A DNA stretch of 64,000 nt from Siphonodentalium dalli (lineage: Eukaryota; Mollusca; Scaphopoda; Gadilida; Siphonodentaliidae), in contig CP136067.1 in assembly GCA_032622095.1 (NCBI GenBank), positions 52,677,899-52,741,898 on the forward strand. Reading direction: 5' to 3'. Shown in pieces: positions 21,999 to 62,676 of the stretch. The first letter of the stretch is position 1. Each line of letters begins with the position of its first letter. The position numbers were made by a program, and so were the translations under genes. The notes below the pieces were generated by a model. The model saw only the letters and a program-made list of their open reading frames with translations, had not been told where the DNA came from and ran no database searches.

Positions 21999-22257
21999 TC
22001 ATACGTTATTATATAAGGGTTGTTCCCGAAGTCGGGACCAGATGTAATCAAGGTGCGAAGATATCCGCTTCTTCTTGATTCGTTTCATTTGTCTCAGCCA
22101 GCCGCTCTGTCTAATAGAGTTATCGTTCATGGATTGCCCTTCAGCGGAGAATCCAGTCCCTTCCACGCCCCGCGAATCTGATAGGAAAATCAGTTTCATC
22201 GTCCTTTTGAGCGAAAGCACAGTCACGTTTTGCAGGCTGTCACCAGTGAATATTCCC
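21999..22257 (-). CDS. Protease gene, last exon: CUB C-terminal half and basic tail
   Basis: Read after an acceptor ending ATCCATAG (phase 2), the exon opens GIFTGDSLQNVTVLSLKR, continues LIFLSDSRGVEGTGFSA and ends with a basic tail containing RQMKRIKKKR before a stop at 21,999-22,001. The SD-x-S-x-x-x-GF-x-A pattern is the standard last strand of a CUB domain. The polypyrimidine tract is weak, but phase and domain fit the preceding exon exactly. No AATAAA was seen close downstream; only ATAAA-like sequence is present. Confidence 0.8.
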
Positions 22258-22583
22258 CTATGGATATAATATACAGGTTACATTACGTGTAGCGTGTGTT
22301 GCTATGACGTTACCATAGATATGCAATATATTATGCATCGTACGATAAACATCACATGGTTCCGTGGCGGACGACGAGACGTCGTTACCGTGTATAATTA
22401 TATAAACAATGGTCATGTGGAAATATATCGCGTCTAGTATTAATGTTGATTGTGTGACAGGAGTGTCTATTTGTTTTTTGATCAGAAATACATGCATTTA
22501 TTTTTTGCTACACACTTGCCACAGGAAACGCCCGAACACAAACATCTGAGTTCAATGCGATCGGGATGCGTAGGCAATAGTAA

Positions 22584-22893
22584 TTGATTGATTGATTGGG
22601 GTTTTATGTCGCTTTAGCCACTAAGGCCATATCACGACATTGCCAGTTTTAATGGTGGAGGAAATCCGCACACTTACGGCTAATCTAACAGTGATTTCAA
22701 TGGCTGATAAACTCGTCGACCATGTGCGGCAAACCACCGGCCATCGGCAAGTAACTGGCAACTTTCCCAGATAACGATTTCGAGTTACAAAGTCCACGAT
22801 GGAAACATGTGAATTTGAACCCTTATCGCCAGCGCTGGAAGGCGAAACGACTTGGAGTTGTACCCCTAACCGATTGAGCCACCGAGGCCCCCC
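22584..22893 (-). mobile_element. tRNA-derived SINE with target-site duplication
   Basis: On the minus strand the element starts GGGGGCCTCGGTGGCTCAATCGG (A-box TGGCTCAATCGG), has a B-box GGTTCAAATTC, then a roughly 200-bp body, and ends CATAAAACCCC followed by (AATC)n. It is flanked on both sides by TAGGCAATAGTAA (22,571-22,583 and 22,894-22,906), a perfect 13-bp target-site duplication, which fixes the element limits. It lies in the 750-bp last intron of the protease gene, same strand. A related copy is at 50,150-50,430. Confidence 0.92.
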
Positions 22894-23007
22894 TAGGCAA
22901 TAGTAACACACGTCGCATGCATGCATATGTAAATAAACCTGGTTCCATGTAACATTTGTAACACACATGTTCCTGTATATATTTAAAATATATGTATGTA
23001 AACTTAC

Positions 23008-23111
23008 GTTTCGTTTCGCCTATCGAAGTGGGTTAGACGTATTTCGAGCGTGTCTCCGTCGAGAAGATGGAATTTGGTGAAATGCAGCTTTATTTTACTA
23101 TGTCTTCTTGT
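23008..23111 (-). CDS. Protease gene, exon 11: CUB middle
   Basis: The acceptor is TTTTCGAACAG and the donor AC|GTAAGT; the exon is 104 nt, phase 0 in and 2 out. It reads TRRHSKIKLHFTKFHLLDGD then TLEIRLTHFDRRNET. The pattern I-x-L-x-F-x-x-F-x-L and D-x-LEI matches the CUB core strands, but the third and fourth CUB cysteines and the acidic Ca-binding residues around them are absent. It joins exon 10 and the last exon without a frame break. Confidence 0.88.
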
Positions 23112-23393
23112 CTGTTCGAAAATTAACAAATCATATATGTGACACATTGAGTGTTTCTTAACCACGTACAAGTGGTCCAAATTAGTAGATGTCCCAAAAC
23201 TCGACTTGAGTGAGTTGTCTTTCAAGTTAAACGACTTTCATTTCGGCGTATAATAACTTCTGGACAATTGCTATTATGTTATAATATGAATATGTGACGC
23301 ATTTGCAAAATTAACAAACGTCAAACAGGTGAAATGCACAATATATAAGTATCTGATTGCGATAGTCTGTTAACCGTTAATGTTAACATGCTA

Positions 23394-25979
23394 CACACTC
23401 ATGCATGGTTTCATTGTTTGGTTTATTTGGATGAATGCCTTTATAATCGTTTCACGATGTTATCAATGTAACTACACAGTAGAAACCACCGATCTAAATA
23501 AACAAGTGACTGGCGAACTAACCAGATACACGAACAAGATTAACACTAACCAGATACACGAATAAGATTAACACTTACTAAATACACGAATAAGATTAAC
23601 ACTTACCAGATACACGAATAATAGTAACACTTACCAGATACACGAATAAGATTAACCAGATACACGAACAAGATTAACACTTACCAAATACACGAATAAG
23701 ATTAACACTTACCAAATACACGAATAAGATTAACACTTACCAGATACATGAATAAGATTAACACTTACCAGATACACGAATAAGATTAACACTTACCAAA
23801 TACACGAATAAGATTAGCCAGATACACGAACAAGATTAACACTTACCAAATACACGAATAATATTAACACTTACCAGATACACGAATAAGATTAACACTT
23901 ACCAGATACACGAATAAGATTAACCAGATACACGAATAAGATTAACACTTACCAGATACACGAATAAGATTAACCAGATACACGAATAAGATTAACACTT
24001 ACCAGATACACGAATAAGATTAATCAGATACACGAATAAGATTAACTAGTTACACGAATAAGATTAACACTAACCAGATACACGAATAAGATTAACACCC
24101 CTTTGCGTGGATCATAAATCCGCGTATATCACGGAGAGAACCAGCTTGGCCATCGCTATATAGTTTGTAACGCTGATATTTAGAACGTCATATAGTTTGG
24201 TGTGTTTTATTGAAGGGTAGGGCCGTTGGGCACCATGATTCACACTAAATAAAAATAAAACAAACTAAAACTACATTCATTTCTTATATTTATATAGCTC
24301 TAGATCACATTTCCATGTGCATCGGTCGTCAGCGCCGGTGGTATTAACTCAGCTGAATTTATTTTTGAAATATATCTGCAGTTTGGATATTATATTATGC
24401 ACCACTGTAAGTTAGCCCAATATTCTACATATTTACTATCGATCGATTCGTCTGTGGCCGCGCACTAAAAACACGCCCAGTTATTGTATCTATACCACTG
24501 TTAGTTATCTAGGTCAATGAGATGTGACGTTGGTTCGTGTGATTGTGGGTTTTATTTGGGTTATAAAACACATGACCCAATTGACAGTTGACCAATCATC
24601 GAACATGAATTTGTGCAATACACATGTTGTGTAAATATCGAGCTATATGTGTGTCTCGCCGACTTATCCACCGAGCTTGACCGATTAACACACTCATGCA
24701 TGGTTTCATTGTTTGGTTTATTTGGATGAATGCCTTTATAATCGTTTCACGATGTTATCAATGTAACTACACAGTAGAAACCACCGATCTAAATAAACAA
24801 GTGACTGGCGAACTAACCAGATACACGAACAAGATTAACACTAACCAGATACACGAATAAGATTAACACTTACTAAATACACGAATAAGATTAACACTTA
24901 CCAGATACACGAATAATAGTAACACTTACCAGATACACGAATAAGATTAACCAGATACACGAACAAGATTAACACTTACCAAATACACGAATAAGATTAA
25001 CACTTACCAAATACACGAATAAGATTAACACTTACCAGATACATGAATAAGATTAACACTTACCAGATACACGAATAAGATTAACACTTACCAAATACAC
25101 GAATAAGATTAGCCAGATACACGAACAAGATTAACACTTACCAAATACACGAATAATATTAACACTTACCAGATACACGAATAAGATTAACACTTACCAG
25201 ATACACGAATAAGATTAACCAGATACACGAATAAGATTAACACTTACCAGATACACGAATAAGATTAACCAGATACACGAATAAGATTAACACTTACCAG
25301 ATACACGAATAAGATTAATCAGATACACGAATAAGATTAACTAGTTACACGAATAAGATTAACACTAACCAGATACACGAATAAGATTAACACCCCTTTG
25401 CGTGGATCATAAATCCGCGTATATCACGGAGAGAACCAGCTTGGCCATCGCTATATAGTTTGTAACGCTGATATTTAGAACGTCATATAGTTTGGTGTGT
25501 TTTATTGAAGGGTAGGGGCGTTGGGCACCATGATTCACACTAAATAAAAATAAAACAAACTAAAACTACATTCATTTCTTATATTTATATAGCTCTAGAT
25601 CACATTTCCATGTGCATCGGTCGTCAGCGCCGGTGGTATTAACTCAGCTGAATTTATTTTTGAAATATATCTGCAGTTTGGATATTATATTATGCACCAC
25701 TGTAAGTTAGCCCAATATTCTACATATTTACTATCGATCGATTCGTCTGTGGCCGCGCACTAAAAACACGCCCAGTTATTGTATCTATACCACTGTTAGT
25801 TATCTAGGTCAATGAGATGTGACGTTGGTTCGTGTGATTGTGGGTTTTATTTGGGTTATAAAACACATGACCCAATTGACAGTTGACCAATCATCGAACA
25901 TGAATTTGTGCAATACACATGTTGTGTAAATATCGAGCTATATGTGTGTCTCGCCGACTTATCCACCGAGCTTGACCGA
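23394..25979 (+). repeat. Nearly identical 1,295-bp tandem duplication with internal minisatellite
   Basis: Copy 1 (about 23,394-24,684) and copy 2 (about 24,689-25,979) line up at a constant offset of 1,295 bp. The only difference I noticed is GTAGGGCCG versus GTAGGGGCG. The first half of each copy (23,510-24,100 and 24,805-25,395) is a minisatellite of CAGATACACGAATAAGATTA with ACACTTAC spacers (units of about 22 or 30 bp). The second half is unique-looking sequence that recurs, diverged, at 54,230-54,620. It fills most of the intron between the exons at 26,024 and 23,111. It is either very recent or an assembly artefact. Confidence 0.95.
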
Positions 25980-26023
25980 GGCTCCAGATCTGTTGCTAAT
26001 GGTTTCAAACGCAATGTACTCAC

Positions 26024-26133
26024 CTTTAAAATATACTCGCAGTCACTGTCCGATGGGTAACCATTCTCGTCACCAGGGGAGATTATCACAGATGGGTCGT
26101 CTCTTACTCTGTATCTGCCACCGCAGTGCGTAT
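26024..26133 (-). CDS. Protease gene, exon 10: CUB N-terminal half
   Basis: The acceptor is CCAATCCAG (weak tract) and the donor AAG|GTGAGT; the exon is 110 nt, phase 1 in and 0 out. The frame reads THCGGRYRV, then VIISPGDENGYPSDSDCEY and ILK. This is the opening of a CUB domain: CGG, the I-x-SPG-x-x-x-x-YP motif and the second cysteine in the DC-x-Y position. It starts immediately after the end of the 1,295-bp duplication (45 bp of intron between). Confidence 0.9.
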
Positions 26134-26595
26134 CTGGATTGGAGTTGGAAACTTTAACCTCGAGATTTAGCCTCAAATTAGACCCAGTAATTACACTCTT
26201 CTGCCGTATTTTTGGGGATTGATGCAGGTCCATTAGCATAATTGCGATTTACTGATGTGTGAAATTCATATAGAAGCACATTCTTCAGAGATGGTATTTA
26301 TACGTGATTGAAATGTCGCATCAAAACAATGAGACTGGTATTTATTTTGTGCCGCATGCATGTAACTATAAAGGGATTTCTAGTTCTTTGCTCTATAAAG
26401 AGCGTCGTCCTCCCTTCACAGTGGATGGTTGAAAGCTGTTAATCAATCACTTCCGTATATCATTTTGAGGCATTTAATGTCAAGTGGCGAGATGTACGAA
26501 GCTTGTGTATTATACACATGTGTATCCAATGGATATACCCAAGAAAACTCGTTATTTCATTTGTAACTAGAAGACTACGGGCGCCGTTCTTCTAT

Positions 26596-28275
26596 TTATT
26601 ACCTAGTTTATGCTATCACAAAATCGAAGATATGATATCATGAAATTGTAAGCATTTAGTAATATCACATATCCGATTTTATGATATCATAAATTCATTT
26701 TGTGGTATCACTTATTCGAATTTGTGATATCATATATTAATTTTGTGATATATATAAAGTAAAATCCAAGATGGCCACCAATGTGTGATAGCTCACATCT
26801 AGTGGTCACCCAAAGATCAATATGAAGTTTGGTGATGATCGGAAGAGGGTACAGTCTCTATGGTGTGCCTGGGCTAGACGAGGTTGGCGCTGGTTCGAAC
26901 CCCGGCATGGATGAAAATCGGGACCGGTTTTCAAGCTTGATTTGGTTTGAGGAACATCTCAATGTACCATTCCGATCAACACATGGCCATTTCGATAAGA
27001 AATGAGAATTTGTTCACGCAAATATGAAGCAATGAACACTCATACTGAGTCCGTGCCTCCATAACTCTAACATATATATACATATATAAAATCCAAGATG
27101 GGCACCAATGTGTGATAGCTCACATCTAGTGGTCACCCCAAAGATCAATATGAAGTTTGGTGATGATCGGAAGAGGGGTGCAGTCTCTATGGTGTGCCAA
27201 AAGATTTTGACATAATAGTAAGATCCAAGATGGCTGCAGGTGGCCATGTTTTTAAAGGAAATTCGGGGGGGGGGGGAATGATGGGTCCCATCTAGTGGTC
27301 ACCTAAAAGATCCATATGAAGCTTTGTGACGATCGGATGATTGATGTGGTATGTAGGGTGTCACCACCGTGTGCCAAAATATTTAGGCATGCAAAGAGTA
27401 AAATCCAAGATGGCTGCCGGCGGCTATGTTTTTCATCGAAAATTGTTCGATAGCTCCCATTTAGAGGTGATGATAAACATGCCTGTACATTTTCAAAACA
27501 ATTCTCCAATAAATACGGACTGTAGTGGTGAACCGATTTTTTCAAATTTGAAATCCAAGATGGCTGTTGGCGGCCATGTTTTTTAACGAATTTCGGAAAA
27601 AACGATGGCTCCCTCATCTGGAGTTCACCCCGAAGATTGATATAGTTTGAGGACGATCGGGTGAGAGATGTGACCTGTAGGGTGTGCTGATGGAAATTGT
27701 TGACGGAGGGCGGATGTCTGATGGTCCCAACGGACGGTCGGACGACACGGCGCATAGACGGGCGGACGATGGACTCCAACCCATGGCAATAGCTCAACTT
27801 GACTAAGTTGAGGTCAAAATACTATTTATTGATATCACTAAATGCATTTAGTGATATCATAAAATATGTATTGATATCATAAAATGAATATATAATATCA
27901 CAAAATCAAAGTATTGATATAACTAAATACTTACTATTTTGTGATATCATATATTCGATTTTATGATATCTTAAATTAATTCTATGATATCACTAATTCG
28001 AATTAGTGATATCATATATTTATTTTGTGATATCAATATATACTAGTTATTTTATGATTTCACTTATCCGATTTTAAGATATCACAAATTCAAGGATTGA
28101 TTGTGCCGTTCTTCTATTTATTACCTATTTAGTGACATCAGTAATTCATTTTATGATATCACGAAATGAATATATTATATCACAAAATCGAACATATAAT
28201 GATATCATTAAATATCTTATTATATCACAAACTGATTTAAAGATATTTATAATCCCAATTTGTGATATTATACTG
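26596..28275 (+). repeat. GATATC palindrome lattice flanking an AAGATGGC repeat block
   Basis: At 26,596-26,757 and 27,825-28,275 the palindrome TGATATCA or a close variant recurs about every 25-35 bp, separated by AT-rich words such as AAAATCGAAT. The central block (26,757-27,820) holds about five diverged units built on AAAATCCAAGATGGC.GCC, CATGTTTTT, CATCTAGTGGTCACC and GATCGG, the same family as 47,330-47,560. GCCGTTCTTCTATTTATTAC occurs at both 26,583 and 28,104, perhaps marking the ends of lattice units. A tRNA-like B-box (GGTTCGAACCCCGG, 26,893-26,906) lies inside and may be a SINE scrap. Confidence 0.75.
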
Positions 28276-28523
28276 TTGCAAGTACAAGTTATAATACAGA
28301 CAGTTTCAGTTTGACTTCAACTGAAAAGTTAACCGGACCGGGGCGGACCGGAAACTACCGCTGTATGTGGATCGGTCCGAAGTGATTTAAATAGCGACGG
28401 CGGAACTCTCCGTTCCAGAACGGTCCAGTTCGCATTCCCACTATAAGACAGTTGGTACGGTTCGTCAACACGTGCACATGCACGGAGCGTTGTGGCGCTT
28501 GATAAACATTGTGTGTTACTTAC

Positions 28524-28645
28524 CAAAGTCCTTGACACAAATATACCCTGTTGTGTCGCTGTGGTCACATGTTTTGAAAATCACATCAAGGCCGTCAGAA
28601 ACAGCGCACTGTGGAAACATTTCCACGGAAACGGACAGGATCCCT
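28524..28645 (-). CDS. Protease gene, exon 9: CTLD C-terminal part
   Basis: The acceptor is strong (GGCTGTGTCTTCTTCAG) and the donor is TTTG|GTAAGT; the exon is 122 nt, phase 2 in and 1 out. It reads GILSVSVEMFPQCAVSDGLD, then VIFKTCDHSDTTGYICVKDF. The pattern CAV ... TCD ... YIC-x-K is the canonical end of a C-type-lectin-like domain. The usual W-(N)-D before the third cysteine is replaced by VIFK, so the classical calcium/sugar site is not preserved. The exon joins 33,429 on one side and 26,133 on the other in frame. Confidence 0.9.
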
Positions 28646-28728
28646 CTGAAGAAGACACAGCCGATAATTAGTTGAGTGGCCAAATAAAAAAGGGCATTAA
28701 TTGCGAATTTACATCCATATTAACTATT

Positions 28729-28876
28729 AAAAGAGTATCAAAATCTAAGGTGGCGTCCAATATGGCGGCCAATTTAAATTTTAGATACAGATGAATATCT
28801 TTAAAAGAGTATCAAAATCTAAGGTGGCGTCCAATATGGCGGCCAATTTAAATTTTAGATACAGATGAATATCTTA
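28729..28876 (+). repeat. Two tandem copies of a 74-bp AAGGTGGCGTCC repeat
   Basis: The segment AAAAGAGTATCAAAATCTAAGG ... GATGAATATCTT occurs twice head to tail with almost no change. It contains CAATATGGCGGCC, akin to the AAGATGGC family nearby. Non-coding. Confidence 0.9.
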
Positions 28877-29018
28877 CGTGGGCGTGACAGATAGTTTTAG
28901 ATTCACCAAGAATCAACATAATCACGTTTTTTTCAGTCGCTATGATGTCACGCCGTCTGTTTGAGGAACCACACTCTCGCAAAAAAATATTCAAGATAAA
29001 TGAACGCTATATATATAA

Positions 29019-32000
29019 CTAGAAGGTGACCCGACTTCGTCCGGGCTTTGGCCTTGAATTGACTATTTTGAAGGTCAAGGTCAAGTGGGGTCACGATTTC
29101 ACCAGTCCAAAAAACTGCCCGGACAAAAGTAACCGACAAACATGCCCGTCGAAATCCATCCGGTTTTACCCGATTTGACCTTAAATTGATCATTTTGAAG
29201 GTCGAGGTCAGGTCGGGGTCACGACTCTACCCGTCCAAAACACTCAGTGGACAAAAGTAACCCTATGTATCAACTTTCGTGGAAATCCCATCAAAATTCG
29301 CGATTTGACCTTGAAATGACCAGATTTCAAGGTCAAGGTCACGTTGCATGGGCAAATGAATAGGCCTATGCCACTTCCCGGCCGAAAATACCCCCACATA
29401 CCAAGTTTCATCGAAATCCCGTGATATTCGGGCGTTTGACCTTGAAATGCCCCGATTTCAAGGGCAATGTCACGTCGCACGGGCAAATTAATAGGTTTAT
29501 GCCACTCCCGGCAGAAGGTACCCCCACATACCAAGTTTCATCGAAATCCCTTGATATTCGGGGGTTTGACCTTGATATAACCCGATTTCAAGGTCAAGGT
29601 CACGTCGCACGGACAAATTAATATGCCTATGCCACCCCCGGCCGAAAATACCCCCACATACCAAGTTTCATCGAAATCGGCTTGGCCGTGTTCGAGTTCA
29701 TCGCGAACACACAGACAGACAAACACACAGACAGATCTTCCAAAATATATAATAGACTAGAAGGTGACCCGACTTCGTCCGGGCTTTGACCTTGAATTGT
29801 CCATTTTGAAGGTCAATGTCAAGTGGGGTCACGATTTGACCAGTCCAAAACACTGCCCGGACAAAAGTACCCGACAAACGTGCCCGTCGAAATCCATCCG
29901 GTTTTACCCGATTTGACCTTGAATTGATCATTTTGAAGGTCAAGGTCAGGTCGGGGGTCACGATTTGACCCATCCAAAACACTCAGTGAACAAAAGTAAC
30001 CCTATGTATAAAATTTCGTTGAAATCCCATCAAAATTGGCGATTTGACCTTGAATTGATCCGATTTCAAGGTCAAGGTCACGTCACACGGGCAAATGAAT
30101 ATGCTTATGAGACTCCCCATAGGAAAGTACCCCCACATACCAAGTTTCATCGAAATCCCGTGATATTCTGGCGTTTGACCTTGAAATGACCCGATGTCAA
30201 GGTCAAGTTCACGTTGCGCGGGCAAATTAATAGGCCTATGCCACTCCGCGGCCGAAATTTCCACCACATACCAAGTTTCATCGAAATCCCTTGATATTCG
30301 GGCGCTTGACCTTGAAATTACCCGATTTCAAGGTCACGTCGCACGGGAAAATTAATAGACCTATGCCAGTTCCCGGCCGAAAATACCCCCACATACCAAG
30401 TTTCATCGAAATCGGCTCGGCCGTTTTCGAGTCCATCACGAACACACACAGACACACAGACAGACAGATCTTCCAAAATATATAATAGACTAGAAGGTGA
30501 CCCGACTTCGTCCGGGCTTGGACCTTTAATTGTCCATTTTGAAGGTCAAGGTCAAGTGGGGTCACGATTTGACCAGTCCAAAACACTGCCCGGACAAAAG
30601 TACCCGACAAACGTGCCCGTCGAATCCATCCGGTTTTACCCGATTTGACCTTGAATTGATCATTTTGAAGGTCAAGGTCAGGTCGGGGTCACGATATGAC
30701 CCGTCCAAAACAATCAGTGGACAAAAGTAACCCCACGTATCAAATTTCGTCGAAATCCCATCAAAATTGGCGATTTGACCTTGAAGTTACCCGAGTTCAA
30801 GGTCAAGGTCACGTCGCACGGGCAAATGAATATGCTTATGAGACTCCCCATACGAAAGGACCCCCACATACCAAGTTTCATCGAAATCCCGTGATATTCA
30901 GGCGTTTGACATTGAAATGACCCGATTCAAGGTCAAGGTCACGTCGCACGGGCAAATTAATAGGCCTATGTCACTCCCCGGCCGAACGTATCCCCACATA
31001 CCAAGTTTCATCGAAATCCCGTGATATTCGGGCGTTTGACCTTGAACTGACCCGATTTCAAGGTCACGTCGCACGGACAAATTAATAGGCCCATGCCACC
31101 CCACGGCCGAAAATACCCCCACATACCAAGTTTCATCGAAATCGGGTCGGCCGTTTTCGAGTTCATCGCGAACACACACACAGACACACACACACACACA
31201 CATCTTCCAAAATATATAATAGACTAGAAGGTGACCCGACTTCGTGCGGGCTTTGACCTTGAATTGTCCATTTTGAAGGTCAAGGTCAAGTGGGGTCACG
31301 ATTTGACCAGTCCAAAACACTGCCCGGACAAAGTACCCGACAAACGTGCCCGTCGAAATCCATCCGGTTTTACCAGATTTGACCTCGAATTGATCATTTT
31401 GAAGGTCAAGGTGAGGTCGGTCTCACGATATGACCCGTCCAAAACACACAGTGGACAACAGTAACCCCATGTATCAAATTTCGTCGAAATCCCATCAAAA
31501 TTGGCGATTTGACCTTGAATTGACCCGATTTCAAGGTCAAGGTCACGTCGCACGGGCAAATGAATATGCTTATGAGACTCCCCGTACGAATGCACCCCCA
31601 CATACCAAGTTTCATCGAAATCCCGTGATATTCGGGCGTTTGACCTTGAAATTACCCGATTTCAAGGTCAATGTGACGTCGCACGGGCAAATTAATAGGC
31701 CTATGCCAGTTCCCGGCCGAAAATACACCCACATACCAAGTTTCATCGAAATCGGTTCGGCCGTTTTCGACTCCATCGCGAACACACAGACAGACAGACA
31801 CACAGACAGATCTTCCAAAATATATAATAGACTAGAAGGTGACCCGACTTCGTCCGGGCTATTCAAAAACCAAATTTCAAGTCGATAGCTCCACCCGTTT
31901 CCGAGATCTGGTCTGCGCATGCGGATAAAATTCGTATCCGGGGCAAGATACATACACATACCAAATTCCAAGTCGATAGCTCCACCCGTTTCCGAGATAT

Positions 32001-33428: not shown

Positions 33429-33568
33429 TGTCCATTGAGCTGGTGTTCACTGAATATAGAGTTATCCACCCATCGCGGAACTTCATCCGGCAGCTTTTTC
33501 AATCCAATCCAGAAGTTTTGTGAGTCGGATATTCGAGTCATCTCTTTTATTTTCTTCATCGTCCAGGC
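33429..33568 (-). CDS. Protease gene, exon 8: CTLD middle
   Basis: The acceptor is TTTGTCTTCTCAACACACACAG and the donor CA|GTATGT; the exon is 140 nt, phase 0 in and 2 out. It reads AWTMKKIKEMTRISDSQNFW, then IGLKKLPDEVPRWVDNSIF and SEHQLNG. The FWIGL ... RWVDNS pattern is the hallmark core of C-type-lectin-like domains. The EPN/QPD sugar-specificity motif is not present where it is expected (SEHQLNGQG). The leading A follows the L that ends the previous exon, giving the usual LA pair. Confidence 0.9.
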
Positions 33569-35605: not shown

Positions 35606-36939
35606 ATAATCATTTTATTATCATTTTTATCAAACTCGAAATATAAAAGTTTCGGTTTTCTCAATGATCCTATATTTTCGTTTTTCAATTTGGTCAAAGT
35701 CACAACACGGTGGCGAATCACGTGGTTTAAAGTTGATGACTATCACGAATTCAAAATGGCCGAGGTGATCGTAAACGCGACCAGAAACAATGAATACAAG
35801 TAACAAACTAGGATATAGAGGATCTCCGACGAGTTATCTTGGGATATAAGATTGTTTGAAACGAGTTTGATAAATTTTATTCACAAAGAGTCGTAGACGA
35901 GTTATGAATCAAATTTATCAAACGAGTTTCATAAAATCTTATATAAAACATGACGAGTTGAAGATCTTGTATATCACATGATAAAATCTAGAGCTTTGTG
36001 TTTTTTTAACAAATCAAAGTCCCAAAAAGAGGTTCCAAAATACAGATATATATATAGTCCCTCAATTTGCCTCTTTTTTGTGTGTCTATTTTCGTTAATG
36101 CAACGAAATTGGACAATAATTTACCTTTAATGAACGAAGCAATCACTTTATATTGTTTGGTGTTTGTGTGATGCGCGGCTTTTCGAAATAGTATTAATCC
36201 GTCTGAATCAACGTTATTTTTTGGCGCGATGCCAAGTCATATGTAGCACGCGCCTATTCATCACTAGTGACATATACGGAAATATGTAATGACTTTTTGT
36301 TAATGATATAATAGGGTATTCATGTGATATAATGATATATTACATAGTATTTTGGCAGCTATGAGCATATGCTATACTATTTTTCAAACAAGCTGTTACC
36401 CAATTTGAGTCCAAACTCACAGTTGTTTGCTACAAAATTCTGACCAAAGTTGTCAGTCGAAGGATTCTCCTATAGATATATGGACTGCATGGTGTATTCC
36501 ATGAATCTCCGACTGGCAACTTTGGTCAGTGTGTTATAGAAAACTACTGAGTATTTTTGAAGAAACAGGGTATCAACTCGCTTTAAAAATAAACTAGCAT
36601 ATGTAAACTTGTAACAGTCAAAATGCTATGCTTTGCGTCAGTTCCTCATATATTATGTTTTGTGTGTTTGCGCTCGCCTCGGCCATTTTAAATGCATGGT
36701 ACTCACCAACCTCGAAACCACGTGATTCCCCACCGTGGATAAATGGCGGGGGGGATTCAGAAATGGCAAAAACATTGGCCAAATGAATTTTCCGGCCACC
36801 ATGAGACCTGCTTGTCGACAGGACTACCGGGGCCAAGCCAGTGTCGTCGATTTGTTGAGAACATATTTTGATGTTCGAATGTGCGAACTTATGTAAATTT
36901 AGTATAACACACCCATTCTTCTGTGTTCTTGTAAACTAC

Positions 36940-37064
36940 CAATCTGCTATCTAAATTCGAACAACGCCTGACCGCTGTGGCAAAGTCCACCACGTCGTTA
37001 TCAAAGAATTGATAACACCTTCCTTTGGAAAAAGTCCATCCGTCTTGACATCGCCAATCAATAA
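36940..37064 (-). CDS. Protease gene, exon 7: CTLD N-terminal part
   Basis: The acceptor is AACTTGTTACAG and the donor TTG|GTAGTT (a weaker donor); the exon is 125 nt, phase 1 in and 0 out. It reads IDWRCQDGWTFSKGRCYQFF, then DNDVVDFATAVRRCSNLDSR and L. The C-x-x-GW-x-x-x-x-x-x-C-Y opening is that of a long-form CTLD, followed by the A-x-x-x-C helix. Splicing to 33,568 produces SRLAWT, the conserved LA junction. It follows the EGF exon across an 11.8 kb intron. Confidence 0.9.
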
Positions 37065-46636: not shown

Positions 46637-46740
46637 TGTGTTAGATCGTGCGAAGCGATAATCTCACTGGCATATATAACTAGCCAAACGTTATCGAGTT
46701 TAACAATCCTATTTTTCGTTATTTTAAAAAAAAAAAAACG

Positions 46741-48852: not shown

Positions 48853-48975
48853 CGTGTCTAATGCCAGGCAGAGCCCGTTCACATCGGTCACCAACAAAAC
48901 CATCAACACAGACACATCGACATTCAATCCCTGCTCTGAATCCCCCATGGTCACAACCGTCATCTGGACATCTGC
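48853..48975 (-). CDS. Protease gene, exon 6: EGF-like module
   Basis: The acceptor is ATACCATTCAAG and the donor CACG|GTGAGT; the exon is 123 nt, phase 1 at both ends. It reads GRCPDDGCDHGGFRAGIECR, then CVCVDGFVGDRCERALPGIRH. Six cysteines and the C-x-C-x-x-GF-x-G-x-x-C ending define an EGF-like module. The spacing, with GGF and no cysteine after it, resembles EGF modules that follow astacin domains in nematode NAS proteins (C-x-x-GGY ... NC-x-x-C-x-CP). The symmetric phases let the module be inserted or lost without breaking the frame. Confidence 0.92.
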
Positions 48976-49457: not shown

Positions 49458-49584
49458 CCGAACACGAGTACGCTCGATACACGTAGAGAGAATCCAAAAA
49501 GCTCGGACCATCGGAGTCTCCAATGATGTTCTGGTAGGCAGGATCCAGTGCAACCATGGTGATGTTATCGTCAGCAGAGTACGC
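49458..49584 (-). CDS. Protease gene, exon 5: end of astacin domain
   Basis: The acceptor ends ACACGCAG and the donor is TCGG|GTAAAT; the exon is 127 nt, phase 0 in and 1 out. It reads AYSADDNITMVALDPAYQNI, then IGDSDGPSFLDSLYVYRAYS and CS. The DP-x-Y-x-x-x-IG-x-x-x-G-x-SFLD pattern and the final YxC cysteine are standard for the C-terminal end of the astacin catalytic domain. The donor has T at +6, otherwise GTAAA. Confidence 0.93.
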
Positions 49585-51011: not shown

Positions 51012-51221
51012 CCTATCTCCGTAATGCATCACGCTTTTATAGTCATACGGCACACCATGCGAGTCGTAGCTGATGTTTATGTCGGTGGCTTTTTTGTACG
51101 TCCCCAGACTTCCTGTTCTCACATTATCTTTGAGCACCCGGATGTACATATCCCGGTCATCTCGATTCATCTCGTGCATAAACCCGATAGCGTGGCCCAA
51201 TTCGTGTACAATTGTCGGGAT
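51012..51221 (-). CDS. Protease gene, exon 4: astacin zinc-binding site and Met-turn
   Basis: The acceptor is TTCATTTTCTTCAG and the donor AGG|GTAAGT; the exon is 210 nt, phase 0 at both ends. It contains the full astacin signature HELGHAIGFMHEMNRDDRD, with three zinc-ligand histidines and the catalytic glutamate, and further on SVMHYG, the Met-turn with the conserved tyrosine. All active-site residues are present, so the enzyme should be a working zinc endopeptidase. The (CA)n(CT)n tract just upstream lies in the intron; the cysteine-valine stretch read through it is not protein. Confidence 0.98.
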
Positions 51222-51283
51222 CTGAAGAAAATGAATTGAAAAACATATAGTTCTGAGTCTCTGACCGAGACAATAGTAATATT

Positions 51284-51415
<132 letters not shown>

Positions 51416-53925: not shown

Positions 53926-54064
53926 CTTCCTCCTTTGTAGAACATGAGGAAATGTCGGCCGCCAATCATTCCCAGAAGTTCATCGTCCCATTTCACAAAA
54001 CGTATACATGTCCTTTCCTCCCACCTCTTCATGGCCACTCGAATCAGGGCTTTTTCTCGTGCAG
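53926..54064 (-). CDS. Protease gene, exon 2: N-terminal astacin helix
   Basis: The acceptor is TTATTTCTTAG and the donor AG|GTGAGT; the exon is 139 nt, phase 1 in and 2 out. It reads AREKALIRVAMKRWEERTCI, then RFVKWDDELLGMIGGRHFL and MFYKGG. AM-x-x-WE-x-x-TC-x-RF is the classic N-terminal signature of astacin catalytic domains and holds the first disulfide cysteine. Confidence 0.95.
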
Positions 54065-54099
54065 CTAAGAAATAATTCCGTTCAGTTATCGTGTTATCA

Positions 54100-54640
54100 A
54101 ATTATTATATAGTGGGTGTGTGTTGCTGTTGATGGTGATACAACGCTGTGGTCGTTTTGTGAACACTGTGTGAACCGCGAAGCAGTTCTCACCAAATGTG
54201 CTCCCAACGACCACAGCGTATAATCCCCCAACAACACCCACTCACTGTATTCATTTCTTATTTTTATATAGCTTTTTGATGACTTATTCTCATAGAAAAG
54301 CTGAGTGTATTCTTATTAATTTTCACAAAATCTGCCGAGAAGTTGAGACTAGCCCACGCAACGCATTAAGTCAGCCCAATATAATATTTCCAAGAACTTA
54401 GCAACGATAACGTGATCGATATAAATAACTGGCTTCAGATGCAATTCGGCGGACCTTCGAAAAGCACGCCAATTTATTCTGCTAACCGCTTATAGAGATT
54501 AGGTCGGATTAGGTCAACAATTTGTGTTCGTGTTCGTGTTACGGTCTGTGTGTTATTAGGGTATGAAATGTGTGACCCAATTGGTAGTTGACCAATCACC
54601 AAACAGGATTCAGTGTAACACAGACGGGCTATGTAAATAT
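54100..54640 (+). repeat. Hairpin plus diverged copy of the 24.3-24.6 kb sequence
   Basis: ACGCTGTGGTCGTT (54,143) and AACGACCACAGCGT (54,208) form a stem around 50 bp. From 54,230 onward ATTCATTTCTTAT..TTATATAGCT, TGACCCAATTG..AGTTGACCAATCA and TATGTAAATAT recur in the same order as at 24,270-24,640, so the second half of the duplicated unit belongs to a dispersed family. Confidence 0.65.
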
Positions 54641-57600
54641 TACAGAATAACTGGAACGACTTAAACTTGGATAAGCACATATCAGCTCTACTCATTGCAC
54701 ATTTTTCACTGCCCGAAAAAGGTAACATTAGATCAACAACGGTCAGAGGTGCAAAAATACTGTCAAGTCAACACAGAACATTCTTTTCGACGATCCTACA
54801 TTAGTTGATGGTAGTGATGCTAGCCTCTTCGACATCACAAAGTCTGAACGGTTTACACCAAGATTCGATACAGATACAGATGATGCAGTTATATGGTCTA
54901 CGCGATGCAAATCTGATGTGATCGTGTTCAACAATAACATACACATGTATCACCATCAGCAGCAGTGTAAAAGTGTCGTGTCGTCGCTCTGAAACGTTTG
55001 TGGCGTATACTACATAATTTTGATTATCAAAACCTGGGACGGTGTGTTATTGATCGCAGTCAAAACGAAGAGAAATCAGAGCATGAATTAGTTTCATGTT
55101 AGGTTGACGCAATAACATAGTCGTATAAGAGCGACGTATTTTATCCCAAAGGGTTAACCAGATGCGTGAATTTAAACCAAAATTGTGTACAAACACAAAC
55201 ATGTTTGGTAGCGAGATCTTTCACTGGTATAGATCACTACATCATAACGCATGACATTTCAGATAAGTAAGTTATACACTGATGTTGCGAAGTACTTAGA
55301 CGAAATTAAAACATAATTATAAAGTACAAGTATTTTGGCAGTAATGCTATTTAGTTTGCGAATGGGAATAATTCACAGAGCAGAATCGTGGGAACTATAT
55401 TTTTTGTCGGAGGGGATGTGCGAAGTGGTTGTGTTATCTTTATTTCCAATAAATTGATCGGCGAAGACATTCGCTTATTTTGAAAACCCTCCTTCCCTCC
55501 CAGTTTTTGTTTGTTTTGGGAATACACATTTGATTGATGTCTGCCCCCATTTGGCCTACATCTATATACGGTTATTGTGCCTCAAAAAATTGTCACCCAC
55601 ATGTTTGTATTCCTTACTACTACATTTATTGTATCGGCTTCCTGTAAATAACTATGTTTTCTAAACAGGTAGCTATGACCGCATTCCAGTTGTTGTCTTT
55701 CACTCTCACCCTGTGGGGTAAATACCTTTTCTGGACATTCCGTTTCCGATTCCAGAATTCCGACCGGAAGAGCGTGTTCGACGTTGTAGTTTTGATTACT
55801 CCAATGCGTCATTCTGGGACATTATGCTCGTAGAAAGGTAGTTAATGTATTTTCGATATATTTCGATACCGGAAAATATTTAAAAGCGAATATTATTAGG
55901 TGTAATTGGAGTGCAAACCGACGAGTGGCTTTAAGCCAGGTTTAAAAATTGCCATAGACCTTTTTAGATATTTAATCAATTCTGTCGATGTCAACTATAA
56001 GGATTCTAAATATTGTCTCAAAATTAATGTTAATCGTAACAAATTAGAAGAAACTGTTCAAACACATAATATAGCATGAGGGAAATATAAGTGACAATAA
56101 GGCTGGTATTTAACTAATAGCTTATTAGTGTCGAAGACCGTGTCATTGGTGATGCAGAAGTAATTTCTTGGCCTGATTAAGAAGCAACATGGTGCTTTTG
56201 TTCAGACATATACAGATGCTCGCAGCCATAGTTTGTGCAATAAATCGATGGGTGTAATGTTGAGTGTGGCTCAAATACATTTTCAAGTACCACGGCCTTA
56301 AACTTAGATGTGACTGCAACAAGGAAAATAATTGTTCTTCGATTATGAATCTAGGATTACATTGATCAGACTCCCTTAATAGTTGTTATTTCTCCGGTGT
56401 CAGTTACCAAGTCCCTCGTCTGTTTGTACTTGAATATAATTCAGGAGCGTTCAATTAGTTCTATGGTGTGACACCTATTTGTGGATGTAGGGATAGTGAG
56501 ACTACTAGAACTTTTATAAATAGTGTGCACTGATTAAGTCTCTAAACTATCCTTGGGAACTAGATTAATATTCTGTTTGTGTTATATCGGTGGTACTGTC
56601 TATACACATATACGCTGAAGTTGTGGCGGTCGATGGCGTTGGCCTCTTTCAAATGTGTCTTGCTATGTATCGCTCTAAGTTCATCAACATCCACACTCTT
56701 TTTGTAGAGAGAAAGCACTTGACATACATGCACGTAAGTTAATATTGGGTCAATATGGCAACGCATGTTGTCGACATAGATAACACACATGTTATCTCGG
56801 AAGTAATTTGTTTGTTGTTACATTGAATTGAACATAGGCATGTCCTTGCAACCAGCTTCCCCATAGCTATGATCGTGCTAGTACATCTGATTCCAAGATT
56901 TGGTGTTTATCTAATTTCGAAACCACAATTTCTCAGCTGTCATCCATATTTTACCATCTAGTATTTTAGACACTAGAGCAGGGGGAAGGGCTGTATGATT
57001 TAATTATTCCCTCACTCGATTGTCCACAACAATGATTACATTACGCACATATGAATGAAAAGGCAAAATAGCTTTAAACAAAATGTGGGTTACAATGTAT
57101 GGAATTAGTCTAAGATGCCTGTGACCCAGCATTGACATGATGAAACACCATTTTTGAGGTGATGTAACCCATGTAAATTTATATCCATGTGCCATGTATT
57201 TCGTAACCTCTTACGTATACCAGGTTCAACACAATGTGAAGGAATTTCCAAAATCTGAATGATTAAGACAATTAACTTAATATGGTCATATGAATCTTTA
57301 GTCTCGACTCTTTGACCAACATAAGTGAAATAATGATGCGCGTAAGTGGTGATTATCCCTACTATGGTGACAGTCAGACCATTCTTATTTGCCTCGATAC
57401 ATTGGACTTCAGTACGCCTATCCACCCAGCTACCCATATCAAAGTCGTGTGTTTTAATATTAAATTACAATAATAAAACAAACAAAAGAGAGATATGCGT
57501 GATCTAAAGTAATGTATGTGACCCCTTCTATTTAATTGGTGTACTTTCATCCATGCAGTACGCAGATGTATCACATAAATAAATTCAAATTCAAATTCAA

Positions 57601-58900
57601 AAAGACTGAGAATGCAGAACTACGTCGCTTTTCTACTTGTCGACGTTACGACAGGCGTCCATACAAACTCCATGTAGCTCCCTCTAAGTTACCACTGCGA
57701 TATAGCACTGCCACAAGGATGGTACTTTGCAGACCGATATATCTATTTTTACATATCGTCGGAACTATATTTAGTCACCTATTATCTTATTTTGACCACC
57801 AAAAGTTTACAATAATGGAAATTCTTTCCGCATTATAAGAACAATATGAACTGAACCAGACATAGACAATTTTAATCCTAAAACATAAGAACTAAGAACA
57901 CGTAAGAAATCCTTACCAAATGTCCTTATGGCAGTGGTATCTCAGCGGAGCGATGGGAGATAACTCTGCCTGGAATTTGGCGTCCGTATAGTTTTGTGCA
58001 TGACGTCACGTGATCTGAATGCAATGATGTTCTCAATTCGTACACGGAAAGAAGCAGCAGGTAAAATGTGAGTGCGTTTTTCAAACTTGTGTTTTTCCTA
58101 TAATGCTGTGAATTTGAAATGGCTGTCATGCACAATTGTACATGCTATTGTTATGACTTTCAAAATATATATTTGCATGATGTGCAAGTTGTCGACATCA
58201 GCATCCCTCAATCGTTTGAAGTAAAGCAAAGTTGACGAAGGATCAGGTTATGTCCGACTTGATAGTAATCGCCCTTTAAGCTACCGAATCAGTCTCTAAT
58301 TAACAGGTATCACAGCTACCATTCGATTTCCGCCTCTCTGGCTGACAAGGGCGCTCTATGGCAAAGGCCACCTCCATGGCCAGAACGTTGCTTTTTTTTC
58401 CGTGAGGCTACGGACGTTTAAATAAATTAAAACAGAATGGACAGGTATTTATCAAGTCCAACACATTCACCCTGTACTGTGAGTATAGCCTGACCGTACA
58501 TTAAATGTGCTCACTAACAACAGAAATAGTGCACAACTCAGAATAATAGAAATTCCCAAAGCGAGTGGGTATGACTTTGTGTTTACTTAAATAATGATGG
58601 CGGTATCCCTCGCCTGAAACCGTTGTAGCAACAGAAAACAAAATATTTTGTTCCTAATATACCCATGGAACTGGAACTGGAACCGAAACTGTTCATATGT
58701 TTTAGATAATTTGAACAGTTCCTATATATGGAGAGATAATACATTTTCGATATGATAAATCGTCTGGATTGGCTCACAACCACGCCAATACTTGTTTGTG
58801 ATATGCCCTAAGTACTAGATTCTAGAAAGTTTTATATATGACTATAGTCTGTACATGTGCGTGGATCTGAAATACAATCATCAATGCTATTACTTATAGT
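54641..58900. other. Intronic stretch, mostly unassigned
   Basis: No exon is supported. The minus-strand frame at 55,582-55,812 and the one at 57,926-58,135, with a hydrophobic FYLLLLSVYEL stretch, lack phase-compatible splice sites. Near 57,575-57,600 an AAATTCAAATTCAAATTC run looks like a retroelement tail. Confidence 0.4.
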
Positions 58901-58904
58901 TATA

Positions 58905-59042
58905 CTTGTTTTAGGGGGTAGCAGGAAGACAGCCCGATAGGGCTAGGCTACCCCCGACAATACACTGCTATACTTTATTATGTATTAATGCCACTGTATC
59001 ATTCGTGTGTATTGTAAATAAACTATCCTATCCTATCCTATC
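58905..59042 (+). mobile_element. 3' end of a non-LTR retroelement, (CTATC)n tail
   Basis: The segment ends GTGTATTGTAAATAAACTAT followed by CCTATCCTATCCTATC, with a G-rich hairpin-capable GGGGGTAGC ... GGCTACCCCC upstream. An AATAAA signal followed by a short pentamer tail is typical of CR1-like LINE or SINE 3' ends. No coding part remains. Confidence 0.55.
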
Positions 59043-59637
59043 ACACACCCTGCCCAATTGAAGGTCAGAATTCGGCAATTTTCCATTGATTATAACGATC
59101 TTTATTGAAAAACAAGAGTGGTATCGCGTGTTCAGGCATTTATCTTCCACTACTATCGTCAGTGACTTGGAATATGTCAGGGGAATAAAATAAATGTGGC
59201 ATTCAAATGGACAGGGGTGTGCAAAAATCATACCCACTCGCTTTGGGAATCCTATATTTTTCTGAGTTGTACGCTAGTTCTGTTGTCGGGGAGCATATGT
59301 ATACGGTCAGTCTACAATCACAATACACAGTGAATATGTTAATGGGTATGCATAATAGTCCATTTTGTTTTAATCCATCGAATCGCCCGCAGCTAGCCTC
59401 ACCAAAAAAAAGCGTTCTGTCCATAGAGGCGGCCTTGTTTGCCTGAGAGCGGCAGTGTCAGCCAATTTAAAGAGACGGCAAATCGAATGGTAGGTGTGCG
59501 CTGACCTCGAGTTTTGATCTCGAAAATTGTTCTCCACTTATATTAGACGGCTGTATCACCTCAACGTGCGACTGTTCGATACGTCGTATGAACGGACACA
59601 CCCTCGTCTACAGCATAATGTACCAATAGTTCAACCA

Positions 59638-60345
59638 TTAAAGGGGCAGTGTCAAAGGGGAGTAAAAAAATTGTAAATAATTCCTATTTGACTTATTTAC
59701 TTTAACACATGCACCGTACCGTATCCGAGGTACAAAAATGCATGACATAATTATGAGTACGAACGTCGGAGTGTTACCTTATCGTATGTACTGGTTGTTT
59801 TTTTTGGTATTCGCACTCGCGTAAACCGCCGGCAAGCTGCATTGAAATAACGAAAGCTACAGTGAAATAACGAAATCGTATTTCACTGTAGCTTCTATAA
59901 TGAAATACGGATGGCAGCAAAACTGGAATGAATAGAACGCTCGTCGTCAAGATATTCTCGTAAAATATCAGGCAAATGTATCCAATAAAATGTTAGATAA
60001 TAATTAATATGCATACTCATCCCCGAAAAGTATTAATGTTATTGTATGGTCAGTATGTGTCTTGAGTTGATGCCCCGTATCGATATAATTTTTTACCCGA
60101 TCTGTGCCAAATGTTGTTCAATTCATATGATTGTGTTATTACATTGAAATTCGTAAATTAGTTTATGACTCCAGCCATTTATAATTTAACTAATTTATAT
60201 TAAATAATTAAATTTGATTTTCATGATAGCCTGCATGTTAACCGGAACGTTTTTGGCAGACATCTTCGACTCAAATTAATTATTTTGCATTATATTATCG
60301 TTGTTACAAGGAATGTATTGAATTTGGCATACAATCTTCATTGAA
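59638..60345. mobile_element. Diverged copy of the TTAA MITE
   Basis: The left edge is TTAA followed by AGGGGCAGTGTC. The interior matches the 46.0 kb element: GACTCCAG.CAT..AATT.AA, AAATTTGATTTTCATGATAGCCT against AATTTTAAGATAGCCT, and ACATCTTCGACTCAAATTA.TTAT. The right end (TTGGCATACAATCTTC) is decayed. A hairpin with AGCTACAGTGAAATA and TATTTCACTGTAGCT lies at 59,850-59,895. Confidence 0.65.
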
Positions 60346-61900
60346 CAGTTGTGATTAAATTCGTAAAATTATCAGTGTCATGTTGTGTGCTTATAAGTAG
60401 GTTATATCCTGGTGATGATAGTTTTCACGAAATAGCCACTGAGTCTCGTCAAAGACTCGTGGATATTTCTCGTATACGATTACCACGATGATGTTACCTA
60501 TTTACAGTCTGAAACATTTTCAATAATTCCTTTAATTAAAATCGTCAATGTTATTATCCATAGCTTTCACAACTCACCATTTAGAATAGTTTAAATTAGC
60601 CATGGCAATAATTCGTTTCCATACCGAAACGTCAATTAATATATAGTTCGATTTCCATTTCAGGACCATTGTGTTGTGTATTTCTGATATATATCCAAGT
60701 AATTACATTATGATTACATGTGGATATATTTTACACGAATTTCTGTTGTGAAACAACTCAACCCCAAGCCCATCCATTATTCAATTTACTCACTATACGT
60801 GTTCGGGATCATGTAAGGAATCGTCGCATTCGGCCAGTATCTGATGGTCCTCCTCTGTTTTGGTTTATCAACTCCATTGCTGACTCCGAAACAGCTTGCT
60901 ATCTGAATTAAATTCAATTCAATTCAATTGATTTATCTGATCATCAAATGAAGATATCACAGAGTGCAAGATAGTTACACATTCAAATAGTACAGTGTAT
61001 AATTAAAGGCACGTGAGGCCTTAGTTGTCGAAAATATTCATATTTGTTCTAATCACCGTAAACAGAAAAACAGAAAAACGCATACAGTTTCGTTCATATA
61101 TACCATGACCATCACGTAAACAGCATGTTATCATAAAGACCTACTATATTTTACCTAAGCAAGAGCCTGATTGTGTTACAGAAGACAGCACAATGCTACT
61201 GGCTAATCACACACAAATGGCATAAACGCTCTTTATTAGTTCCATATCAGGAATTCACCAACAAAGAACGCTCTTTATGTTTACCATCATAATATAAACA
61301 AACACCAGAAAAGTTACTTTTTATGCTTTTGTTTACATAACAATGGTCAAACGTTTGACAATAACATACTGTTTATGCGATATTTCTTATATGTATACGG
61401 ACAAAGTCTGTCTACATTTTGATGTTCTTTCTGTTAGTGGCGGTTTTTGACGGGTGGAAATATTTTCACAGGATACCCACCGCCAAGGCCAACCGTACCT
61501 TTAAGGGGCTGTGCAGTGCGAAATTGGAAATGTGTTATTAGTGATTTTTAGCTTATATTGTGCTACCATAGAGCTAAGCATAAACTATGGTATTGGTGTT
61601 GGGGGTCATTCTTTATAAAGGTTTTGTTACATGTGTAAACAACATGTATATTATGTCGGTATATTTTTGAAGGGAGTTTACTTGTTTGCCCGAAAATGTA
61701 GCCTCGAGAGTTTCGGATGATATCGATGACCTTTTTTATAAAGATTGAGAGATTTTTGGTAATTTTTTTGGTGCGACTATTATATTGTGCTGCTATCTTG
61801 TGACCGTTTGGTCTAAAGTAATATAGTTTGCGAAATGACTGGTGAAATTCAATAAATATTGCGGGAACTGTCGTGGAAAAATAAATAAGAGATATATACT
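60346..61900. other. Intronic stretch, mostly unassigned
   Basis: AATTCAATTCAATTCAATTG at 60,911-60,930 looks like a retroelement tail. TTTAAGGGGCTGTGCAGTGC at 61,499 resembles the left end of the TTAA MITE family. No exon is seen. Confidence 0.4.
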
Positions 61901-61909
61901 TAATAGGTC

Positions 61910-62345
61910 TTATAAGGTGCATAATCCGAATTAACGCTCCCAAATTGCTATTTATTTGGCTTCGGGGGTAAAAAATATTTGATTCGAGTCGAGGAACCCA
62001 CCTATCAACGATCAGAGTGATCAGATATCGATTATTGAAATTTGTTAATTCCCGAGATATATATTTTGTGGCGGCCTGGCAAATATTCGTCAAGCCGACG
62101 GTCTCTGACCAAATTGCGGATAAAATGGATAACTCTAAAATCAGGTGGCTTTTGGTGTTAGATATTTGACAATCCGGCCAAATTACGTTGAACAAATTGT
62201 TGATAAATAACATGTTTTGGGCAATTTTATACTATAGTTGACTGTGGTTAACATCATTTTTGGGCAATTAATCGATTATGATAACTGAAACAGCATTTCA
62301 AAAATTGTTGTTGTTGTTTTTGTTGTTGTTGTTGTTGTTGGAATC
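61910..62345 (+). mobile_element. (TTG)n-tailed dispersed repeat, copy 3
   Basis: It runs from AGGTGCATAATCCGAATTAA through GGGGGTAAAAAATATTTGATT, CGTCAAGCCGACGGTCTC and TTTTATACTATAGTTGACTG to a (TTG)n tail of about ten imperfect units. It aligns with 34,005-34,425 over its whole length. The 216-codon minus-strand frame at 61,563-62,213 crosses this repeat and is not taken as a gene. Confidence 0.75.
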
Positions 62346-62594
62346 TGATGATATGGGGACCATCGAATAGGATTGAGCATCTCTAAGCTATTTCGAAGAT
62401 AATAGACATACCTTTTACATAATTAAGCGTGCAAAATTTATAGCCCAACATATTAATTCATACGATTCGTGGCACAAGAATGTAGTCTAGCTTACATCAC
62501 AATTTTACAAAAATTCGTCCGAGTTCATATGTACCTACATTTTTAAATGAGTATGTATTTCGGACAATAAACACCTATACATGAGTGTACTTAC

Positions 62595-62676
62595 CAGTAA
62601 CGAGATAACTAATATTTCCATTTTTATATATTTTCATTTGATTGCTTATATCATGTCTTTCGCCGGTGTGTAATCC
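62595..62676 (-). CDS. Protease gene, probable exon 1 of those seen: mature N-terminus
   Basis: The donor is ACTG|GTAAGT and leaves phase 1, as exon 2 needs. The frame ends KIYKNGNISYLVT, which resembles the astacin start W-P-x-G-x-I-x-Y; after splicing the distance to the AM-x-x-WE helix is normal for astacins. The 5' limit is uncertain: AACAAG|GGATTA gives the start used here, but the frame stays open further upstream. The usual tryptophan is absent. This is a moderate call. Confidence 0.5.

What the first reader, a model, noticed from the sequence alone, without database searches (positions are those of the whole stretch)
21999..62676. Astacin-EGF-CTLD-CUB metalloprotease hidden in twelve small exons
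The exons fall in order on the minus strand with fully compatible phases and complete catalytic motifs, giving a 509-residue frame plus stop. Known astacin architectures (meprin, BMP1/tolloid, BP10-like, nematode NAS) combine EGF, CUB, TSP1, MAM or ShK modules. I do not recall a described astacin with a C-type-lectin-like domain between EGF and CUB. It may be a lineage-specific protease aimed at a target by the lectin-like module.
Basis: partly seen in the sequence, partly recalled or inferred. Interest (0 to 1): 0.92.

Follow-up and report, generated by a model that had tools for sequence, protein, structure and literature searches.

The report
Astacin protease carrying lectin-like module
An animal gene spread over 13 small exons looks set to make a secreted protein-cutting enzyme with an unusual lectin-shaped part that has probably lost its sugar-binding site; it is a variant of a well-known enzyme family, not a new kind of system.

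Summary
On the minus strand I rebuilt an intact gene of 13 exons (not 12) and 564 residues (not 509), stop at 21999-22001, its 12 introns GT-AG and in phase. Pfam finds Astacin, Lectin_C and CUB above their cut-offs in that order; a six-cysteine EGF-like exon lies between Astacin and Lectin_C. Zinc and Met-turn motifs are complete; the 19 cysteines divide as 1 signal peptide, 4 astacin, 6 EGF, 6 CTLD, 2 CUB.

C-type lectin modules in astacins are already in print: the Figure 1 legend of PMC9848320 lists CLEC. My six literature searches brought no text stating the order Astacin-EGF-CTLD-CUB. The CTLD lacks the motifs of the calcium/sugar site, so a protein-binding exosite is likelier than lectin targeting. 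No usual propeptide was found. The CTLD is a 414-nt, phase 1-1 cassette that could be skipped in frame. The three junctions between domains rest on phase and splice sites alone; no transcript was available. No second astacin with a neighbouring CTLD was seen in this genome, but that search was insensitive.

The parts
62595..62621 (-). Exon 1: start codon and first half of signal peptide (MEILVISLL)
   Evidence: GTAAGT donor, phase 0; top of the list of candidate first exons in the stretch; no homology support
60794..60902 (-). Exon 2: end of signal peptide, short basic stretch KPKQRR, start of astacin domain (RYWPNATIPY)
   Evidence: phase 0 to 1; Pfam Astacin starts at residue 32
53926..54064 (-). 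Exon 3: astacin N-terminal subdomain (WEERTCIRF)
   Evidence: weak Pfam Astacin match on its own, 17.4 bits
52367..52439 (-). Exon 4: astacin (CFSGANGYGKYQPQLLGIGYRC)
51012..51221 (-). Exon 5: zinc motif HELGHAIGFMHEMNRDDRD and Met-turn SVMHY
49458..49584 (-). Exon 6: C-terminal end of astacin domain (GPSFLDSLYVYRAYSCS)
48853..48975 (-). Exon 7: EGF-like module, six cysteines, flanked by phase-1 introns (123 nt, skippable in frame)
   Evidence: cysteine pattern and phases; no Pfam EGF model over cut-off
36913..37064 (-). Exon 8: first third of CTLD (CQDGWTFSKGRCYQF)
33429..33568 (-). Exon 9: middle of CTLD (NFWIGL)
28524..28645 (-). Exon 10: end of CTLD (FPQC...FKTC...GYIC)
   Evidence: not supported by the own-genome profile alone
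26024..26133 (-). Exon 11: start of CUB (HCGG...SPGDENGYPSDSDCEY)
23008..23111 (-). Exon 12: middle of CUB
21999..22257 (-). Exon 13: end of CUB, 47-residue tail with basic cluster KRIKKKR, stop TGA

Best explanation
This is a secreted astacin-family (M12A) zinc endopeptidase with the order signal peptide, very short pro-stretch, astacin catalytic domain, EGF-like module, C-type-lectin-like domain, CUB, basic tail. Shown here: the open frame, splice phases, complete zinc and Met-turn motifs, and Pfam domains. Inferred: it cuts extracellular proteins; the EGF module is a hinge; the CTLD has lost its calcium/sugar site, so it and the CUB act as protein-binding exosites that choose substrate or place, and the basic tail may tether to polyanions. 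Also inferred: the CTLD entered as a phase 1-1 module in the intron between EGF and CUB (exon shuffling), and because exons 8-10 total 414 nt they could be skipped to give a plain astacin-EGF-CUB isoform.
For: Joined frame of 564 aa with 12 phase-compatible GT-AG introns. Pfam Astacin, Lectin_C and CUB over cut-off in order. PDB sequence search: residues 31-232 to meprin beta, 26-191 to TLL1/BMP1, 274-360 to CD209-type CTLDs, 418-517 to cubilin. Motifs HELGHAIGFMHEMNRDDRD and SVMHY; 19 cysteines assigned to the expected sets; five N-glycosylation sequons. The gene appears single-copy in its genome: the 564-aa query gave 69 stretches, 12 of them this gene's exons 2-13, the rest mainly astacin pieces (best C1:231873984 at 33% over residues 19-262; highest identity 51% over exon 5) and weak CTLD or CUB matches with E 0.226 and above. 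No other Pfam domain in three frames of either strand of 37065-46800, i.e. 9.7 of the 11.8 kb of the EGF-CTLD intron.
Against: No transcript tested. Phase 1 is common at borders of extracellular modules (recalled), so matching phase at the three inter-domain junctions is weak evidence. The donor after exon 8 (GTGTGT) is not the consensus. Exon 1 has no homology support. The Lectin_C score is only 6 bits over its cut-off, and exon 10 gets no support from the own-genome CTLD profile. The CUB keeps two of the usual four cysteines.
Confidence: 0.8

Rival explanations
1. Two neighbouring genes: an astacin-EGF protease (exons 1-7) and a separate CTLD-CUB gene (exons 8-13) that happen to lie in a row and in phase.
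For: The EGF-CTLD intron is the longest, 11,788 bp; reading through the exon-7 donor meets a stop after 8 more residues; phase 1-1 compatibility is common for such modules.
Against: I recognised no terminal exon for a short astacin and no start or signal exon for a CTLD-CUB gene (no gene-finder was run); strong GTGAGT donor after exon 7; no other Pfam domain in 9.7 of 11.8 kb of the intron, both strands.
Confidence: 0.13
2. The CTLD exons 8-10 are an alternative cassette, included only in some tissues; the main product is a classical astacin-EGF-CUB protease.
For: Exons 8-10 total 414 nt, flanked by phase-1 introns, so skipping keeps the frame; exon 8 has a weak donor.
Against: The CTLD has kept six cysteines and the WIGL motif, which suggests selection on an included exon; no splice data.
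Confidence: 0.25
3. The gene is a decaying copy (pseudogene).
For: No FXGDI propeptide found in 60.9-64.0 kb or the next 29.6 kb upstream; second CUB disulfide missing.
Against: No stop or frameshift in 564 codons, splice sites of all 12 introns intact, full catalytic motifs.
Confidence: 0.05

Closest known systems
Astacin-EGF-CUB proteases (sea urchin BP10/SpAN type, nematode NAS proteases with EGF and CUB; recalled, not compared here)
   Same: Astacin domain followed by EGF then one CUB; the EGF cysteine spacing looks like the NAS type (recalled)
   Different: A CTLD of three exons lies between EGF and CUB; no recognisable propeptide
BMP1/tolloid
   Same: Astacin catalytic domain aligns to PDB BMP1 and TLL1 over residues 26-191; EGF and CUB modules occur in both
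   Different: Tolloids have several CUBs before and after EGF (recalled); a separate locus with astacin and CUB matches lies in this genome at C5:181.13-181.18 Mb
Meprins
   Same: Best PDB match of the catalytic domain
   Different: No MAM or TRAF match in the joined protein
Astacins with a C-type lectin module (CLEC in the Figure 1 legend of PMC9848320; Astacin and CTLD both named in the Figure 2 legend on Elysia receptors, PMC7663992)
   Same: Astacin plus CTLD named together
   Different: Exact order and species could not be seen, and for PMC7663992 not even that both sit in one protein; figures are not held

Membership tests
Astacin peptidases (M12A) | Pfam Astacin profile over its cut-off | tested here: met
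   158.6 bits against 22.5, profile 2-189 of 189
Astacin peptidases (M12A) | HEXXHXXGXXHEXXRXDRD zinc motif | tested here: met
   HELGHAIGFMHEMNRDDRD at residue 122 (motif definition)
Astacin peptidases (M12A) | Met-turn with zinc tyrosine (SIMHY type) | tested here: met
   SVMHY at residue 179
Astacin peptidases (M12A) | Two conserved disulfides of the catalytic domain | tested here: met
   four cysteines at 65, 93, 114, 227, placed by eye against the meprin alignment; pairing itself not testable
Astacin peptidases (M12A) | Propeptide of 34 or more residues with FXGDI | tested here: inconclusive
   not found in the window upstream of exon 2 or in 29.6 kb beyond, but the first exon is not proven, and the same motif scan gave only chance-looking matches on the paralogue loci, so it has no positive control
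C-type-lectin-like domain | Lectin_C profile, WIGL motif, six long-form cysteines | tested here: met
   28.7 bits against 22.6; WIGL at 340; Cys 275, 286, 304, 380, 393, 403
Sugar-binding C-type lectin | EPN or QPD motif and WND motif of the calcium site (recalled) | tested here: not met
   QGI at the EPN/QPD place and VIFK at the WND place, read by eye from the joined sequence
CUB domain | CUB profile over its cut-off | tested here: met
   42.8 bits against 21.4
CUB domain | Four cysteines in two disulfides (usual, not universal; recalled) | tested here: not met
   only Cys 411 and 439
Tolloid/BMP1 subfamily | CUB-CUB-EGF-CUB type array (recalled) | tested here: not met
   one CUB match, after EGF and CTLD
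Meprin subfamily | MAM and TRAF after the catalytic domain | tested here: not met
   no such Pfam match

The most novel reading that the evidence does not exclude
A lineage-specific astacin with the otherwise undescribed order Astacin-EGF-CTLD-CUB and with no latency propeptide, so that signal-peptide removal (or cutting at KQRR) yields an enzyme active at once, whose specificity is set by a non-sugar-binding CTLD that splicing can include or leave out.
Probability: 0.12. Interest if true: 0.55.

Novelty: new variant of a known kind. Interest (0 to 1): 0.3.

Why it matters
It shows how one protease family gains new targeting parts by inserting a phase-matched module into an intron. If the propeptide is truly absent, it would be a natural exception to the aspartate-switch latency described for animal astacins, and testable with one expression construct. 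As it stands it is a sound gene model of a modest domain-shuffling variant.

Tried and rejected
Propeptide search: no exon with an F-x-G-D-[hydrophobic] type motif in a usable setting in 60.9-64.0 kb (whose scan covered 54-64 kb) or in 29.6 kb further upstream (one FDGDM and other matches without exon context). The same motif scan on the loci held then (L001-L042) gave only chance-looking matches, so it has no positive control; the long-frame astacin L012 has none in its 922-residue held part either.

Search for sister genes: family searches of the same genome gave 62 astacin stretches (150 of 162 candidates scored), Lectin_C 150 matches (150 of 1097 candidates scored), CUB 150 matches (150 of 296 scored), ShK 47 matches (150 of 154 scored). 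I grouped the 62 astacin stretches into 46 loci, this gene included: 7 of 46 have a ShK match within 60 kb downstream on the same strand (8 within 100 kb), 0 of 46 have a Lectin_C match downstream within 100 kb. This zero is weak: the window's own three-exon CTLD is not among the 150 scored matches either. The query of the CTLD-CUB half alone did not complete and not repeated; the whole-protein search covered it.

Two other astacin loci of 45 were looked at, for 10 kb each: C3:9.91 Mb shows an EGF-like cysteine cluster and a CBM_14 match below its cut-off (19.4 against 22.1 bits); C5:229.12 Mb shows the astacin end (21.5 bits, below cut-off) and other families that have no stretch significant on its own.

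First CTLD control used 10 of 30 loci because my script read only the plus strand of each locus; one search repeats it with the right strands and 23 of 30 loci (7 dropped: short or with a stop). One search gave 17.9 bits against at most 5.8 for shuffles; the report cites.

Scan of other stretches: 53926-63900, minus strand, gave one weak Astacin match (17.4 bits, exon 3); 21999-31900, minus strand, gave none. The plus strand was scanned only over 37065-46800.

Species: not named. A molluscan haemocyanin model (PF14830) gave no match, but rang nowhere in the controls either, so it says nothing. Searches looked for a matching genome in print and settled nothing.

Structure prediction was not used: the spliced protein is not a letter-for-letter translation of contiguous window DNA, which that tool requires.

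Papers: PMC9848320, passages and all of its section 5. PMC11788884, PMC7179942, PMC11452194, PMC7663992, PMC12005716, PMC9382459, PMC3390340: passages only. Others: search listing only. BP10, NAS, exon-phase and lectin-motif statements are recalled.
Full report
What was checked. The finding claims a 12-exon astacin-EGF-CTLD-CUB gene on the minus strand between 21999 and 62676. I rebuilt it from open frames, motifs, splice sites and phases. The result is 13 exons, 1695 coding bases, 564 residues and a TGA stop at 22001-21999. The 12 introns are GT-AG, with phases 0,1,2,0,0,1,1,0,2,1,0,2 and no internal stop. The window is part of contig C7 of a 2.23-Gb, nine-contig genome whose species is not given.

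Domains. Pfam matches the joined protein to Astacin at 32-228 (158.6 bits, profile 2-189 of 189), Lectin_C at 297-404 (28.7 bits, cut-off 22.6) and CUB at 411-517 (42.8 bits, cut-off 21.4). Between Astacin and Lectin_C, exon 7 holds six cysteines (231, 236, 247, 249, 251, 260) in an EGF-like arrangement, though no Pfam EGF model passes its cut-off. Against the sequences of solved structures, the catalytic part matches meprin beta best (2.1e-29) and TLL1 (1e-28) and BMP1 (1.2e-27) next; the CTLD part matches CD209-type lectins (best 6.5e-5); the CUB part matches cubilin (5.4e-13).

More than chance. The Pfam matches run across the junctions inside each domain, which tests the splicing there. 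A CTLD profile built from 23 of 30 fetched CTLD loci of this genome (7 dropped: short or with a stop) gives the joined CTLD 21.0 bits; 200 shuffles reach at most 7.8 and three wrong exon orders 6.1, 9.7 and 10.1; the frames of exons 8 and 9 rank first (8.4 bits) and second (7.0) of 2209 window frames of 20 residues or more, the next being 6.4. The match covers exons 8-9 only; exon 10 alone scores -1.3. An earlier run with 10 of 30 loci, strands misread, gave 17.9 bits against 5.8. Pfam does not detect exons 10-13 singly. The 19 cysteines fall into sets: 1 in the signal peptide, 4 astacin, 6 EGF, 6 CTLD, 2 CUB. The three junctions between domains (exons 6-7, 7-8, 10-11) are supported only by phase 1 on both sides and by splice consensus; phase 1 is common at such borders, so this is weak.

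Catalysis. HELGHAIGFMHEMNRDDRD and SVMHY are complete, matching the zinc motif, family glutamate, XXRXDRD and Met-turn described in PMC9848320. An active protease is therefore expected (inference).

Propeptide. The same review states that animal astacin propeptides span 34-486 residues and share FXGDI. In the model only about eight residues ending in KPKQRR separate a plausible signal peptide (judged by eye) from the catalytic domain, and no FXGDI-type exon was found in the upstream 3 kb of the window or in 29.6 kb beyond it. Exon 1 has no homology support and the scan has no positive control, so this may mean a missed exon rather than a missing propeptide.

CTLD. It has the WIGL motif and the six cysteines of the long form. 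At the place of the EPN/QPD motif the sequence reads QGI, and at the place of WND it reads VIFK (read by eye; motif names recalled). Calcium-dependent sugar binding is therefore unlikely and the wording 'lectin-like' should not be taken as sugar targeting. The three exons total 414 nt between two phase-1 introns, so the cassette can be gained or skipped without breaking the frame.

Genome context. The whole-protein search of the genome found 69 stretches: 12 are exons 2-13 of this gene; the rest are mainly astacin pieces, the best by E-value C1:231873984-231874715 at 33% over residues 19-262, the highest identity 51% over exon 5 at C4:46739176; CTLD and CUB matches elsewhere have E of 0.226 and above. 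No second copy of the CTLD-CUB half is visible. Of 46 astacin loci (62 stretches grouped, this gene included), 7 have ShK within 60 kb downstream on the same strand and 0 have a scored Lectin_C match downstream within 100 kb, but only 150 of 1097 Lectin_C candidates were scored and the window's own CTLD was not among them. Among the 150 of 296 CUB candidates scored, CUB on the same strand next to astacin was seen by eye only at C5:181.13-181.18 Mb, a tolloid-like locus. One paralogue, C3:9.90-9.92 Mb, carries an EGF-like cluster and a sub-threshold chitin-binding CBM_14 match.

Literature. The Figure 1 legend of PMC9848320 lists CLEC among modules found in astacins, and the Figure 2 legend of PMC7663992 names Astacin and CTLD among domains drawn for sea-slug receptors. 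Searches for astacin with C-type lectin, Lectin_C, CTLD, CLECT and lectin domain brought, in the listings and in the passages opened, no text that states the order Astacin-EGF-CTLD-CUB; only open-licence PubMed Central papers are covered, figures are not held, and most listed papers were not opened.

Verdict. A real, probably functional gene; a new variant of a known protease family, most simply explained by insertion of a module. Interest 0.3. The open points that would raise it are the missing propeptide and proof of the transcript.

Noticed in passing
23517-24098 and 24812-25393: The same 28-base tandem array appears twice, 1295 bases apart, apparently part of a tandem duplication inside intron 11 that stops short of exon 11.
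   Followed up: no
28900-32600: Intron 9 is filled with diverged ~130-base repeats, with G+C 0.44 for 28001-32000 against 0.38-0.39 on either side.
   Followed up: no
15639-16664, minus strand: A 341-aa open frame that looks like a piece of a LINE-type reverse transcriptase (name recalled, not searched).
   Followed up: no
L012 (G000:C1:231873984-231874715): An astacin domain inside an uninterrupted 1108-residue frame (922 residues in the held piece), unlike the split exons of the other astacins listed.
   Followed up: partly
L078 (G000:C3:9911300-9921299): A paralogous astacin followed by an EGF-like cysteine cluster and a weak chitin-binding CBM_14 match, suggesting further module swapping.
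   Followed up: partly
22002-22142, minus strand: The 47-residue tail after the CUB holds a basic cluster KRIKKKR that could bind polyanions.
   Followed up: no
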